Assembly (NCBI RefSeq): GCF_004310425.1
Contig: NZ_SIUB01000005.1
Span: forward strand, 62,001 to 126,000
Reading direction: 5' to 3'
From: Hansschlegelia quercus
Lineage (GTDB): Bacteria > Pseudomonadota > Alphaproteobacteria > Rhizobiales > Methylopilaceae
Length of the DNA stretch: 64,000 nucleotides
Of the stretch, positions 33,754 through 42,679 are shown in pieces (positions within the stretch are counted from its first letter, which is position 1; each line of letters begins with the position of its first letter). Under the pieces are notes generated by a model. It saw nothing but the letters and a program-made list of their open reading frames with translations. It was not told where the DNA came from and searched no databases. Made by a program: the position numbers and the translations under genes.

Positions 33754-33773
33754 AGCAAAAGCTAACACCTCTC

Positions 33774-33898
33774 CGTCATTCCGGCTGAAGCGAAGTGGAA
33801 TGCCGGAATCCATCACCGCGCACGCAAAGGTCATGGCGAGAGACCTCGAATTCTAAGACCCTCGCGGTGATGGATTCAGGGACAAGCCCGGAATGACG
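33774..33898. repeat. 125-bp imperfect palindromic element between def and fmt
   Basis: Nested inverted arms: CGTCATTCCGG (33774-33784) with CCGGAATGACG (33888-33898), and GAATCCATCACCGCG (33806-33820) with CGCGGTGATGGATTC (33863-33877), enclosing about 42 bases. Folding would give one long hairpin. The phrases GTCATTCCGG and GGATTCAGGGACAAGCCCGG are typical of dispersed intergenic palindromes in alphaproteobacteria. It is probably one copy of a repeat family rather than a locus-specific element. Confidence 0.75.
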
Positions 33899-33932
33899 GC
33901 GGCGAAAATCCGCATAACATGACGGAAAACCC

Positions 33933-38027: not shown

Positions 38028-38182
38028 GGCGCTGAGTGCTTCAAAACGGCCTTTTGGGCCTCCTCAGCATGAGGAAGTTTGAGACACACAAACGGTCCTT
38101 ATGCTGAGAAACCTGCGTAAGCAGACGTCTCGAAGCAGGCAGCGCGGCACCGCTCGATCCCCCGTTCCGCAGAATGAGCCGT

Positions 38183-38207
38183 GATCCTCCGGCTCGACCG
38201 GAGGATC
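38183..38207. repeat. Palindrome in the gap between the oxidoreductase and metZ
   Basis: GATCCTCCGG (38183-38192) and CCGGAGGATC (38198-38207) form a 10-bp stem with loop CTCGA. The neighbouring text CCTCCTCAGCATGAGGAAG (from about 38059) is another small palindrome. The whole 38028-38294 gap carries no gene and looks like a set of dispersed intergenic repeats. Confidence 0.5.
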
Positions 38208-38242
38208 CATGTTCCAGCTCCAGAGCTCAACACCCGGGATGG

Positions 38243-38265
38243 ATGGTCCGGTCATGCCGGACCAT
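38243..38265 (-). terminator. Stem-loop downstream of metZ
   Basis: ATGGTCCGG (38243-38251) and CCGGACCAT (38257-38265) pair over 9 bp with loop TCATG, 29 bases after the metZ stop in the direction of its transcription. There is no T run. It is a candidate terminator or another copy of a dispersed palindrome. Confidence 0.45.
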
Positions 38266-38294
38266 GATGCCTGAGGACGGCGGTGGAGCGTTTG

Positions 38295-39494
38295 TCACAC
38301 CGCCTTGAGGGCATGCTCCACGTCCTCGAGCAGGTCATCGACGTGCTCGAGCCCGATCGACAGCCGCAGCATGGCGTCGGTGATGCCGAGCTCCGCCCTC
38401 GCGTCGGGCCCAAGCCGCTGATGCGTCGTCGTCGCGGGGTGGGTCAGGATCGATTTGGCGTCGCCGAGATTGTTCGAGATCTTGACCACCCCGAGCGCGT
38501 CGCCGAAGCGGAAGGCTTCCGGCTTTGCGCCGTCGAGCGTGAAGGCGACCAGCGTGCCGCCGCCCGCCATCTGCTTTTTCACCAGCGCGGCCTGCGGATG
38601 GTCCGCCCGCCCGCAATAGGTCAGCTGCTTCACCTTCGGATGCGTCGCGAAGAAATCCGCGACCGCGGCTGCGCTCGACTGCGCCTTCTCGACCCTGAGC
38701 GTCAGCGTCTCGAGCCCCTTCGCCAACACCCAGGCGTTGAACGGCGACATCGCCGGTCCGGTCTGCCGCAGGAAATTGTGCAGGTGGTCCATCACGAATT
38801 TTTCTGAGCCCAGCACGACGCCGCCGAGCACCCTGCCCTGCCCATCGATATGCTTGGTCGCGGAATAGACCACGACGTCAGCGCCGAACTTGAGCGGCTT
38901 CTGAAGGACCGGCGTCGCGAACACGTTGTCGACCACGAGACGGGCGCCGTTGGCGTGCGCGATCTCGGCGATCGCCTCGATGTCGTAGACCTGCAGCGTC
39001 GGATTGGTCGGCGTCTCGATGAACAGCACCTTGGTCTCGGGCCGGATCGCCGCACGCCATTGGTCGAGATCCGCCCCGTCGACCAGGGTCGACGAGATCC
39101 CGAAGCGAGGGCAAAGATCCTCGACCACATAGCGGCACGAGCCGAACAGGGCCTTGGCCGCAACCACATGGTCGCCGGCGTTGAGCTGGCAGAGCATCGC
39201 CGCGGTGACCGCCGCCATGCCGCTCGCCGTCGCGCGGCCGGCTTCGGCGCCCTCCAGCGCAATCATCCGGCGCTCGAAGGTCGCGACCGTCGGGTTCGAG
39301 AAGCGCGAATAGATGAAGCCGGGGTCGCGCCCGTCGAAGCGGGCTTCCGCCGCGTCCATCGTATCGTAGGCGAAGCCGGAGGTCAGATACATCGCCTCCG
39401 ACATCTCGCCGAAGCCGGAGCGCGCCTCGCCCTCGTGGATCAGGCGGGTGGCGTCACGCAAAGGACGGTCTTTGGGAAGGCTTTCGCGGCTCAT
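38295..39494 (-). CDS. metZ: O-succinylhomoserine sulfhydrylase
   Basis: 399 residues, Cys/Met-metabolism PLP family. Visible: FIYSRFSNPTVATFERRMIA, SGMAAVTAAML, YVVEDLCPRFGI, LFIETPTNPTLQVYDIEAIA, the PLP Asp region VVDNVFATPVLQ and the Schiff-base lysine in YSATKHIDGQGRVLGG. It makes homocysteine directly from O-succinylhomoserine and sulfide. A SAM-II riboswitch precedes it, giving feedback control by S-adenosylmethionine and supporting the methionine role over cystathionine synthase. Confidence 0.95.
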   Translation of the reverse strand: MSRESLPKDRPLRDATRLIHEGEARSGFGEMSEAMYLTSGFAYDTMDAAEARFDGRDPGFIYSRFSNPTVATFERRMIALEGAEAGRATASGMAAVTAAMLCQLNAGDHVVAAKALFGSCRYVVEDLCPRFGISSTLVDGADLDQWRAAIRPETKVLFIETPTNPTLQVYDIEAIAEIAHANGARLVVDNVFATPVLQKPLKFGADVVVYSATKHIDGQGRVLGGVVLGSEKFVMDHLHNFLRQTGPAMSPFNAWVLAKGLETLTLRVEKAQSSAAAVADFFATHPKVKQLTYCGRADHPQAALVKKQMAGGGTLVAFTLDGAKPEAFRFGDALGVVKISNNLGDAKSILTHPATTTHQRLGPDARAELGITDAMLRLSIGLEHVDDLLEDVEHALKAV

Positions 39495-39567
39495 GGTCTG
39501 CGACCTCAGACTTCAAAAGCCGGGTCGCGCATAGGCCCTTCAAGTCAGGGCTGATCCGCGCGTCCGG

Positions 39568-39624
39568 CCTTTTAGCAGGTTGTTTTTACGTGGCTGCAAG
39601 CCGGCCGGCCCAAGGAACCACGGG
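39568..39624 (-). ncRNA. SAM-II riboswitch in the metZ leader
   Basis: Read on the minus strand from 39624: CGTGG opens stem P1, closed by CCACG; between them lies the conserved GGCTTGCAG. After P1 come TAAAAACAA and the invariant GCTAAAAGG, whose end can pair with CCTT in the loop to make the pseudoknot. These are the conserved positions of the alphaproteobacterial SAM-II (metA) motif. It ends 73 bases before the metZ ATG. SAM binding would lower metZ expression; the exact expression platform is not evident. Confidence 0.88.
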
Positions 39625-39689
39625 AGAGAAGCCGTCCTAAGCCCGCCGCCGCTTGGCGTCAACGGCCGGGCGCCGTAAAGCGGCACCTA

Positions 39690-39922
39690 ATGTTGATACA
39701 GAAGCGGGTCCGTGAACCGCATGAGACGGGAGACTGTGGAACGGCTCATAATGGCGAGCCGAATCAGTCAGTTAGTAATCTCGCAAGCTGTGGATGGACG
39801 ACACCGCGGGTGGGGAAAAAGAGACATCTCCCGGGAGCGATGATCGTCGCGCGGAGTTTGGATTGGAGTGTGTTCCCGCACAAAGGCTATGGCTCTAATC
39901 GACGACCAAAGGGCTACCTGAT
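39690..39922. other. Lower-GC, hairpin-rich non-coding stretch before the dCTP deaminase gene
   Basis: About 233 bp with composition unlike its GC-rich surroundings. Nested complementarity is visible: GACTG (39732-39736) with CAGTC (39765-39769) enclosing CGGCTC/GAGCCG (39742-39747/39756-39761), and GCGG/CCGC (39704-39707/39717-39720). A 78-codon plus-strand frame overlaps it but is not protein-like. It could be a long leader, a small RNA gene or a remnant of whatever carried the gene in. I do not match it to a known RNA family. Confidence 0.5.
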
Positions 39923-41092
39923 ATGAACCATTCTCCCCCACCCGAGCTGTTTCGCGGAGGCTCGTTGCCGCTTGATGGTGAACGCCTTTCGCAAAATGCA
40001 GGGGTTCTACCTTCCCAGTGGATCCGGCGCCTCAGCGCCGGAAAGGCAATCATCGGGCGCCCATTCGATGACGGCCAGATCCAGCCCGCAAGCCTCGATC
40101 TTCGCTTGGGGCGTAGGGCGTTCAAGCTGGCCGCAAGCTTTCTACCGGGTGCTTCGACGGTCGAAGATCGAATAAAGGAGTTCGCTTCTTACCAGATTGA
40201 TCTAGAGACGCCACAAATTCTAAGTAAAAATGGCGTTTACCTCATCGAGCTTGAGGAAAGCCTTAAATTACCGGACAGCATCTCTGCCTTTGCTAACCCA
40301 AAGAGCTCAACAGGGCGGCTTGATATATTTACGCGGGTCGTCACGGACAAAGCCGAAGTGTTCGACGTCGTGCCCGCTGGGTACGAAGGCAAATTATGGC
40401 TTGAGGTGTCTCCGCGGACGTTTGAGGTGAAAGTCGTCCGCGGTTCTCGGCTAAGTCAACTGCGGTTTCACAAACTGAATTCAATGCATCACAAGACCAG
40501 TCGCTTTCGGCTAGACGATGGCGCGCTACGTCGCCTTCATAGAGAGACGCCTCTAACCGATAGTGAGCCTGTAATAAGGCAAGGCCTCAATTTGCGTCTT
40601 AACCTTACTCCAGAAGGAAAAAATCCAGTCGTAGCGTATGAGGCGCGAAATTACACCGGATTTATTGATATTAGCAAAATAGACTACTACGATCCGATTG
40701 AATTCTGGAAACCTGTTGAAGTACCGCCTCGTGGACGAATGATCCTCACTCCCGGCCAGTTTTATATTCTTGCTTCAAAGGAACGCATTCATATCCCGAA
40801 GACCCATGCGGCGGAAATGGTAGCTGTTGATCCCGTTATGGGAGAATTTCGAGTCCACTATGCGGGGTTCTTTGATCCCGGATTTGGGTCTCAAAACGGC
40901 GGAGCCGGCAGTAGAGCGGTGCTTGAGGTAAGAACCTATGACATACCGTTCTACATAGAGGATGGGCAGACTATCGGCCGATTGGATTTCGAGGAAATGA
41001 ACGAAGAGCCCCACCAAGGTTATGGGGAGAATGGCCAGTCTAATTATCAAGGTCAGGGGTTGAAACTTTCAAAGCACTTCAAAACCTTATAA
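39923..41092 (+). CDS. dcd: 2'-deoxycytidine 5'-triphosphate deaminase, probably acquired
   Basis: 389 residues of the long two-lobed alphaproteobacterial Dcd type. Key blocks: DDGQIQPASLDLRLGRRAFK, the substrate site ANPKSSTGRLDIFTRVV, LWLEVSPRTFEVKVVRGSRL and the end SNYQGQGLKLSKHFK. It converts dCTP to dUTP for dTTP synthesis. Unlike all neighbours, the gene is distinctly AT-richer with different codon use, for example TTTATTGATATTAGCAAAAT near 40660. Directly after its stop lies the 3' third of a second, GC-rich copy, so it probably replaced the native gene by transfer. Confidence 0.9.
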   Translation: MNHSPPPELFRGGSLPLDGERLSQNAGVLPSQWIRRLSAGKAIIGRPFDDGQIQPASLDLRLGRRAFKLAASFLPGASTVEDRIKEFASYQIDLETPQILSKNGVYLIELEESLKLPDSISAFANPKSSTGRLDIFTRVVTDKAEVFDVVPAGYEGKLWLEVSPRTFEVKVVRGSRLSQLRFHKLNSMHHKTSRFRLDDGALRRLHRETPLTDSEPVIRQGLNLRLNLTPEGKNPVVAYEARNYTGFIDISKIDYYDPIEFWKPVEVPPRGRMILTPGQFYILASKERIHIPKTHAAEMVAVDPVMGEFRVHYAGFFDPGFGSQNGGAGSRAVLEVRTYDIPFYIEDGQTIGRLDFEEMNEEPHQGYGENGQSNYQGQGLKLSKHFKTL

Positions 41093-41098
41093 GCTGAG

Positions 41099-41398
41099 GT
41101 GTTACGTCGCGCCGCCGAGTTGGTGCCGTTCGACCCGATGGTCGGCGAGTTCCGCGTGCGCTACGCCGGCTTCTTCGATCCCGGCTTCGGCCACGCCCAG
41201 GCGAGCGGCTTAGGCGCACGCGCCGTGCTGGAGGTCCGCAGCCACGAGGTGCCGTTCATCTTGGAACACGGCCAAACCGTCGGCCGCCTCGTTTACGAGC
41301 GCATGCTGGAGCGCCCCCGCGCGCTCTACGGCGAACTCGGGGCTTCGAACTATCAAGGCCAGAAGCTCAAGCTGTCGAAGCACTTTAGAGCGCGGTGA
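41099..41398 (+). pseudogene. 3' remnant of the native dCTP deaminase gene
   Basis: About 96 codons (AAELVPFDPMVGEFRVRYAG and on to SNYQGQKLKLSKHFRAR) match residues 295-389 of the intact upstream Dcd at roughly 60 % identity by eye. They are written in the GC-rich codon style of the chromosome. The N-terminal 75 % with the substrate-binding core is missing, no ribosome-binding site precedes GTG 41099, and the fragment starts 6 bases after the intact gene's stop. It is best read as a decayed native dcd. Confidence 0.85.
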
Positions 41399-41583
41399 CG
41401 AGCCTCCGCAGGCTGGCCTGACGCGGGTCGATCTGGCGTCCCAGAACACAGAGATGGAAAGAGAACGAAGCAGGACGCGCTCGATTCGTTCTCCTCGACA
41501 GAGGAAGAACGCTTTCGGACGAGCGCGTCTTAATAAAACGTGTCGGTGGTGCGAGTGACGAACAACGCGGGTCGATAAGACGC

Positions 41584-41634: not shown

Positions 41635-42495
41635 TCACCAGGTCCTAAGCGCGGCGACGCCTGCGCGGCCGCCCAGGGCGCCGGCGAGAGCGCCGAGAAC
41701 GAGGGCGAAGAACGCCACGAACGCGCCGAGCGAGCCGGCCTTGGCCGCCGTGTCGGCCGCCTGCTTGGCCTGCTCCTTGGTCCGGGCGGCGAAGGCGGTG
41801 TAATCGGCCTGATACTTGTCGATCTGGGCCCTCGCCTGATCCTGCGGGATGTTCTGGGCCTTCGCGAGCGCATCGGCCGCCTGGGTCTTGGCCTGCTCCT
41901 GCTGCGCGGGATCACCGGTCAAGGCCGCGCGAACTGCCGAAACCGCCTTGTCGCGCAACGCCGCCGGATCGTCGCCGGAGCTGTTGCGGATGCCGGATTC
42001 GATCGAACCCATCGGGTCCGACGCGTTGGCGAGCGCAGGCGCCGCGGTCTGCGCGGCCGTCGCGATCGCAGATCCTGCGCCGCTGAGCGTGCTCGTCACG
42101 CCGGAAAAGGCGCCGCCCACAACCGCGCCGACGGTCGTCGTCAGGAGGTAGAGAATGATCAGCGTCGTGGCGGCCCAGGCGGTGAGGCCGTGGAAGACGC
42201 CGGCGTCTTTGCGGTCGACCCCCGATGTGCGACCGGCGACGTAGCCTCCGGCTGCCGACGCGATGATGCCGGAGACGACGGCCCATATGCCGGCGCTCAA
42301 CGAAAACGTCGAAGCCGCGGGTGAAGCGCCCTCGACAGGGTGAACAGTCGCAAGTCCAATTCCGAGACCGAGCAGGCTAAGAATAACTTGCACGATCAGC
42401 GCGATCGCGACGCCCGCGAAAACAGAGCTCCAGGCAATGCGGTTCAGCCGGAATGTTCCCGGTCTGTCGATGGGGTCGGTAGAGTAAACAGTCAT
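41635..42495 (-). CDS. Hypothetical membrane protein (PhnA-like annotation type)
   Basis: 286 residues from ATG 42495 (frame open to 42582). Three or four membrane helices near the N-terminus (WSSVFAGVAIALIVQVILSL, SLSAGIWAVVSGIIASAAGG, WAATTLIILYLLTTTVGAVV) are followed by a long Ala/Gln-rich helical segment (about 190-255; EQAKTQAADALAKAQNIPQD). A final helix pair with LVLGALAGALGGRAGV ends the protein. Similar Rhizobiales proteins are called PhnA-like without functional basis. An intrinsic terminator follows. Confidence 0.7.
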   Translation of the reverse strand: MTVYSTDPIDRPGTFRLNRIAWSSVFAGVAIALIVQVILSLLGLGIGLATVHPVEGASPAASTFSLSAGIWAVVSGIIASAAGGYVAGRTSGVDRKDAGVFHGLTAWAATTLIILYLLTTTVGAVVGGAFSGVTSTLSGAGSAIATAAQTAAPALANASDPMGSIESGIRNSSGDDPAALRDKAVSAVRAALTGDPAQQEQAKTQAADALAKAQNIPQDQARAQIDKYQADYTAFAARTKEQAKQAADTAAKAGSLGAFVAFFALVLGALAGALGGRAGVAALRTW

Positions 42496-42679
42496 AGCAT
42501 TCGCCTCTCTGGCCTCGGGACAAGCTCTCGGAGAAAACTGTCCAGCGTCTTCGAACGCTTTGAAGCCGGATTTGTTCGACATGCAGGCATGTGAAACTGC
42601 CTAGACGATCAAACGCCTCATGGAGCGACCAGTCGGCGCTCGGCCTCAACGTCGGCAGGCGGCTGAATTCAGAGCGCGC

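What the first reader, a model, noticed from the sequence alone, without database searches (positions are those of the whole stretch)
39690..41398. In-place replacement of the native dCTP deaminase gene by a foreign homologue, leaving a native 3' stump
A complete Dcd gene (39923-41092) with clearly lower GC and different codon use abuts, 6 bases after its stop, a GC-rich fragment (41099-41398) encoding only the C-terminal quarter of a related Dcd. The two share about 60 % of residues by eye over 95 positions. The incoming gene kept its own full 3' end, so the junction is not a crossover inside the homologous region; the native 5' part was lost. Replacement of a housekeeping nucleotide gene at its own locus is unusual. 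No integrase, transposase or obvious target repeat is seen at the junctions.
Basis: partly seen in the sequence, partly recalled or inferred. Interest (0 to 1): 0.8.

Follow-up and report, generated by a model that had tools for sequence, protein, structure and literature searches.

The report
Foreign dCTP deaminase replaced resident gene
In this bacterial genome a housekeeping enzyme gene (dCTP deaminase) has been swapped, at its own address on the chromosome, for a distant relative's version, and the last quarter of the old gene is still attached behind it, so the swap can be read directly from the sequence.

Summary
The intact two-domain DCD (39923-41092) has GC3 0.514 against 0.843 +/- 0.054 for 49 window ORFs. 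The fragment behind it (41099-41398) is 85-97 % identical to the C-terminus of the single DCD of all 12 held congeners, while the intact protein is only 48-52 % identical to those; all 12 carry their DCD beside metZ, as here. The right junction is sharp (41109/41110); the left lies between about 39680 and the start codon. Going further: the intact gene belongs to a DCD clade with an 8-residue longer inter-domain linker, absent from 86 of 86 other rows. In the order, 28 of 377 genomes with a match carry this form, in eight families including the window's; none of the 28 has a second match. In family f42 both forms occur at one locus. So: in-place xenologous displacement, perhaps one of several exchanges of two DCD forms, frozen with a stump of the loser and apparently recent (stump Ka/Ks 0.09). 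Donor and recombination mechanism remain unknown. The phenomenon is known; the preserved stump and possible recurrence are the interest.

The parts
39923..41092 (+). Intact two-domain dCTP deaminase of the long-linker form, the incoming (xenologous) gene; the only full DCD found in the genome
   Evidence: NF005734 472.5 bits; PF06559+PF22569; GC3 0.514; 48-52 % to 12 congener natives; long-linker clade 100/100; own-genome search: the other PF22769 hits are the stump and a 149-aa ORF that looks like dUTPase
41110..41398 (+). Stump of the native DCD: about the last 95 codons and the stop; N-terminal domain and half of the C-terminal domain missing
   Evidence: 85-97 % protein identity to the C-terminus of 12 of 12 congener DCDs; 92 % DNA identity to G005; Ka/Ks 0.087 to G005
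41093..41109 (+). 17 nt between incoming stop codon and native sequence; right junction at 41109/41110
   Evidence: blastn match starts at 41110 in 11 of 12 congeners and at 41111 in the twelfth, G008; alignment with four congeners
39681..39922 (+). Spacer upstream of the incoming gene, GC 0.55, not alignable with congeners; holds the left junction, probably mostly foreign
39552..39631 (-). SAM-II riboswitch (RF00521) of the divergent metZ; native left flank
   Evidence: 56.9 bits, gathering 36
38295..39494 (-). metZ-like Cys/Met metabolism PLP enzyme, native left neighbour, beside DCD in all 12 congeners
40472..40498 (+). Codons (about residues 184-192) of the 8-residue linker insertion that marks the incoming form
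   Evidence: present in the intact protein and 13 of 13 clade rows (7 residues in one of them), absent in 86 of 86 others

Best explanation
Xenologous gene displacement in situ. A foreign DCD gene of the long-linker form, of which hardly more than the gene remains, entered between metZ and the resident short-linker DCD. It supplied the function, and the native 5' leader and roughly the first three quarters of the native gene were deleted, leaving the native last 95 codons and stop as a dead stump 17 nt behind the new stop codon. Shown: native locus on the left, native stump, foreign composition, phylogeny outside the genus, loss of the native 5' part. Inferred: that the foreign gene works as the cell's dCTP deaminase; that the stump is dead; that the route was insertion followed by one deletion (preferred) rather than a one-step replacement; that the donor is an unsampled alphaproteobacterium.
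For: 12 of 12 congeners have one DCD, beside metZ, nearly identical to the stump and about half identical to the intact gene; 17 of 17 other family members (those 12 and 5 more) have one match each. The intact gene falls in a 14-row clade outside genus and family, 100/100, p-AU 0.015 against genus membership, and carries that clade's linker insertion. GC3 lies 6 standard deviations below the window's ORFs. Flanking metZ and stump are native by identity and by Ks to G005 (metZ 0.51, stump 0.35). The stump is little decayed: Ka/Ks 0.087 to G005, three residues found in none of 12 congeners against 0-2 such residues in each congener. No other full DCD was found in the genome.
Against: No donor: in the rows listed, the best near-full-length relatives are 50-56 % identical in searches of 397 order, 385 class and 398 phylum genomes; no match in phages, none confirmed in viral contigs, best 49 % in plasmids. 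The gene has a very long tree branch (1.2-1.5). Residues 26-106 alone show no affinity to the long-linker clade, and the whole N domain (26-184) gives no well-supported placement; residues 27-46 are closer to the genus natives (53 %) than to that clade (35 %), so the gene may itself be mosaic. One genome per species, one assembly, no reads. The gene order right of DCD varies among congeners, so only the left side proves the locus.
Confidence: 0.88

Rival explanations
1. Ancient tandem pair with differential loss: the ancestor had both DCD forms side by side; congeners lost the long-linker copy, this genome lost most of the short-linker copy.
For: Both forms occur beside metZ in the order; the two lie head to tail here.
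Against: None of the 28 order genomes with an insertion-length match has a second match. 12 congeners and 5 family members would have lost the same copy although the stump nests with G005 inside the genus. It does not explain GC3 0.514.
Confidence: 0.05
2. One-step replacement by homology-facilitated illegitimate recombination, anchored in the conserved metZ leader and joined illegitimately inside the native gene (a variant of the best explanation, differing only in mechanism; its odds overlap with those of the best explanation).
For: Genomes with the long-linker form also have metZ with a SAM-II leader near DCD, and 49-62 nt of the leader are 84-90 % identical in nine of ten matching loci outside the genus (79 % over 91 nt in the tenth). 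A displacement that leaves the old 3' gene is proposed for Vibrio T6SS modules (PMC5361080, passages read).
Against: The metZ promoter between riboswitch and junction looks native: a 15-mer at 39650 is exact in 7 of 12 congeners and in 0 of 15 loci outside the genus, though G032 differs by only 2 bases and G018 by 3, so this is suggestive only. The left junction lies in spacer that no held sequence matches.
Confidence: 0.2
3. Tandem duplication of the native gene followed by rapid divergence of one copy.
For: Head-to-tail arrangement of homologues; residues 27-46 are nearest to the genus natives.
Against: The intact copy shares a clade-specific insertion with distant genomes, its composition is foreign, and genus membership is rejected at p-AU 0.015.
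Confidence: 0.02
4. Assembly or contamination artefact joining DNA of two organisms.
For: The genome is an unnamed draft (17 contigs) and reads were not available.
Against: The foreign stretch is about 1.4 kb inside a 303-kb contig, native sequence adjoins on both sides, contamination is given as 0.05, and without it no full DCD would be found in the genome.
Confidence: 0.03

Closest known systems
Gene displacement in situ / mosaic operons (Omelchenko et al. 2003; title seen only in the reference list of PMC1779527; the paper itself is not held)
   Same: A resident gene is replaced at its own locus by a distant homologue with neighbours unchanged (concept recalled).
   Different: Here the loser's 3' stump survives, so direction and relative age can be read from one genome and its congeners.
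Vibrio cholerae T6SS effector-immunity displacement (PMC5361080; passages read)
   Same: An incoming module displaces the resident gene and leaves the old 3' part behind it; the authors suggest something akin to homology-facilitated illegitimate recombination.
   Different: That is an accessory locus with a conserved upstream anchor and retained whole immunity genes; here a single-copy metabolic enzyme, no anchor demonstrated, and a remnant that cannot be a full enzyme.
Two-domain 2'-deoxycytidine 5'-triphosphate deaminase PRK07559/NF005734 (solved structure 2r9q)
   Same: Same domain order and full-length match (472.5 bits to the model; 361.9 bits to 2r9q).
   Different: 8-residue longer linker between the domains, low GC, long branch.

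Membership tests
Two-domain DCD (NF005734) | Full-length match above curated cut-off with DCD_N and DCD_C in order | tested here: met
   Intact protein; the stump fails (176.3 bits against 283)
Two-domain DCD (NF005734) | dCTP deaminase activity | not testable with these tools
   The intact protein departs from 5 of 92 near-invariant columns (K68, P97, S101, H183, A238); no assay possible
Xenologous gene displacement in situ | Same locus and neighbour as the resident gene of relatives | tested here: met
   metZ divergent neighbour in 12 of 12 congeners and native stump on the other side; the next genes to the right differ among congeners and were of no use
Xenologous gene displacement in situ | Incoming gene phylogenetically outside the recipient's genus and family | tested here: met
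   not resolved for residues 26-106 or 26-184 alone
Xenologous gene displacement in situ | Resident gene lost or inactivated | tested here: met
   only a remnant of about 95 codons left; no other full DCD found in the genome
Xenologous gene displacement in situ | Donor lineage identified | tested here: not met
   no near-full-length relative above 56 % in the listed rows. A usual support rather than a requirement of the concept
Homology-facilitated illegitimate recombination | One joint in a stretch homologous to the donor | tested here: inconclusive
   left junction lies in non-alignable spacer; promoter beside it looks native; donor unknown
Long-linker DCD clade | 8-residue insertion between DCD_N and DCD_C, and position in the clade | tested here: met
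Insertion by mobile element | Integrase or transposase and target repeats at the junctions | tested here: not met
   four flanking genes have no such domain by Pfam; no pair of direct repeats of 12 nt or more brackets the two joints; the rest of the window was not scanned for integrases

The most novel reading that the evidence does not exclude
Two old forms of a core nucleotide enzyme, long-linker and short-linker two-domain DCD, are repeatedly exchanged for one another in place across an alphaproteobacterial order and not kept together, as if selection (for example phage pressure on dCTP pools, or an inhibitor that hits one form) drives the swaps; this window is a swap caught with the loser's end still attached.
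Probability: 0.25. Interest if true: 0.6.

Novelty: new member of a known kind. Interest (0 to 1): 0.42.

Why it matters
Replacement of a housekeeping gene at its own locus is usually inferred only from tree conflict, because nothing of the loser remains. Here the loser's end is still attached and hardly decayed, so direction, relative age and one breakpoint can be read directly. The patchy long-linker form in eight families, and a second locus where the two forms alternate, make it testable whether such swaps recur at DCD and why.

Tried and rejected
Anti-phage defence gene: 0 PADLOC models matched at E 0.001. Phage or viral origin: no match in 50,697 phage records; in viral contigs 13 stretches held a pattern and none was confirmed. 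Plasmid donor: 18 records, best 49 %. SAM-II leader as a homologous anchor: disfavoured but not excluded. Native remnants in the spacer 39660-39940: only hits with E 0.2 or worse. Inverted repeat 39954-39971 / 41392-41409 (16 of 18): taken for chance by a rough mental estimate, not computed. The N-terminal segment as recently native: residues 27-46 are genus-like in protein (53 %) but only 59 % in DNA, far below the stump's 83-92 %; its own tree is unresolved. In-place swap in genus g76 (G249 against G105, G138): flanks of G249 do not align with the other two, so not shown. The genome-contig scan gave one distant locus (Loktanella). The gene order right of DCD varies among congeners and was of no use. 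Rfam, promoter and repeat scans found no mobile-element signature at the joints.

Full report
What is there. The window lies in a 3.58-Mb genome (17 contigs, completeness given as 100, contamination 0.05) on a 303-kb contig. The ORF 39923-41092 (389 aa) is a complete two-domain dCTP deaminase; its best match among solved structures is 2r9q (361.9 bits). Six bases after its stop begins a 99-aa ORF, 41099-41398, which matches only the end of the same family. The intact gene's GC3 is 0.514 against a mean of 0.843 (sd 0.054) in 49 other ORFs picked by a crude rule in this window; the stump's is 0.859.

Comparison with relatives. All 12 other held species of the genus have exactly one DCD match. 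In all 12, metZ lies divergently beside it (81-88 % identical to the window's metZ), the DCD is 48-52 % identical to the intact protein, and its end is 85-97 % identical to the stump. Native DCD GC is 0.71-0.74. All 17 other held family members (these 12 and 5 more) have one match. In the own genome the remaining PF22769 hit is a 149-aa ORF that looks like dUTPase, next to a coaBC-like ORF (these two names are my reading of the sequence, not a family search). So no other full DCD was found.

Junctions. Homology to congeners begins at 41110 in 11 of 12 (41111 in G008), 17 nt after the incoming stop codon. On the left, similarity ends near 39680 (alignment with four congeners; sliding identity with 12). 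That left block is the metZ promoter and a SAM-II riboswitch (39552-39631, minus strand, 56.9 bits). A 15-mer of the promoter at 39650 recurs exactly in 7 of 12 congeners and in 0 of 15 loci outside the genus; one congener (G003) differs by 2 bases, and outside the genus G032 differs by 2 and G018 by 3, so the motif is not strictly genus-specific. The left joint thus lies in the 242-bp spacer or at the start of the gene. No pair of direct repeats of 12 nt or more brackets the joints, and the four flanking genes tested carry no recombinase domain.

Age. Against G005 the stump has Ks 0.345, Ka 0.030, ratio 0.087; metZ has 0.513, 0.085, 0.165. Three stump residues occur in none of 12 congeners, against 0-2 such residues in each congener. 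The stump is little decayed and the truncation recent compared with the split from G005; 94 codons are few, so this is a coarse date.

Where the new gene comes from. A 101-row tree puts the stump with G005 (SH-aLRT 97) inside the genus (100), and the intact gene in a 14-row group of scattered members of the same order (99). The rows were the best-scoring loci of each search, not an even sample. In a careful 56-row tree that group has 100/100; holding the intact gene with the genus natives costs 32 log units, p-AU 0.015. The group is marked by an 8-residue insertion in the linker between the two domains: present in the intact gene and 13 of 13 group members (7 residues in one), absent in 86 of 86 other rows. 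Against this: the intact gene's branch is long (1.2-1.5). By segments, residues 107-200 and 200-388 have long-linker rows as nearest rows, in starred sets of 10 and 11 rows (99, 98), but residues 26-106 and the whole N domain 26-184 give no starred set, and residues 27-46 resemble the genus natives more (53 %) than the group (35 %). The gene may itself be a mosaic. No close donor was found: 380 of 397 order, 146 of 385 class and 97 of 398 phylum genomes match, with at best 56 % over near-full length in the listed rows, which are capped; 18 plasmid records match with 49 % at best, no phage record, no confirmed viral contig.

The wider pattern. A profile over 64 residues spanning the linker was run on 397 order genomes; 377 matched. 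The 28 are six genomes of family f34, 13 of f32, three of f42, two of f4, one each of f16, f2 and f25, and the window's: eight families. Fourteen of these sequences that were not in the first trees (12 of f32, two of f4) fall, in a 60-row tree, with the others on one side of a branch (25 rows, 96) and show the insertion there. Genera g1, g76 and g124 hold both forms: g1 by the window; g124 by G306, G366 against G377 (171-nt match); g76 by G249 against G105 and G138, whose matches break with no room for the insertion. None of the 28 has a second match; the one genome with two matches, G169, is not among them. In f42 the long-linker genes of G306 and G366 sit beside the same upstream gene as the short-linker gene of G131 (71 % over 1576 bp) and, over a shorter stretch of 365 bp, that of G377. 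In f16 the long-linker gene of G216 and the short-linker gene of G032 both sit beside metZ. In g76 the flanks did not align, so no in-place claim is made. Of the 11 long-linker loci fetched with flanks, some cut short by contig ends, none shows a second, partial DCD, so the stump is so far known only from this window. Direction and number of exchanges elsewhere were not reconstructed, and old paralogy with losses is not excluded for them.

Mechanism. I prefer insertion of foreign DNA between metZ and the native gene followed by one deletion that took the foreign 3' flank and the native 5' three quarters, because the right joint unites a point 17 nt after the foreign stop with the inside of the native coding sequence. 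A one-step event with one anchored joint, as suggested for Vibrio T6SS modules (PMC5361080, passages only), is possible; the native-looking promoter speaks mildly against an anchor in the metZ leader. PADLOC gives no sign of a defence gene.

Novelty. Displacement of a gene in situ is an established concept (title of Omelchenko et al. 2003 seen in a reference list; paper not held; content recalled). Searches of the held library for dCTP deaminase together with horizontal gene transfer and alphaproteobacteria listed 2 papers, both phage genome papers by title, and together with xenolog 0 papers; the other searches were made, of which I saw listings only apart from the passages named. So this is a new, unusually legible case of a known kind.

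Noticed in passing
window 38178-38267: A roughly 90-bp dispersed repeat between the 3' ends of the zinc-binding dehydrogenase gene and metZ; tens of matches in congeners G005 and G001.
   Followed up: no
window 33761-33905: Another short dispersed repeat, with many matches in G005.
   Followed up: no
window 41475-41562: Downstream of the stump, parts of it match two other places in the same genome (C4:7415-7457, C8:474442-474529).
   Followed up: no
window 39552-39631 (-): SAM-II riboswitch in the leader of metZ; also found in 11 of 12 further loci searched.
   Followed up: partly
L138 (G247), L139/L140 (G306, G366), L136 (G249): Long-linker DCD in single genera of families whose other members have the short-linker form; G306/G366 share the upstream neighbour with short-linker G131.
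   Followed up: partly
window 41635-42582 (-): 315-aa ORF right of the stump without a Pfam match; genes right of DCD differ between congeners.
   Followed up: no
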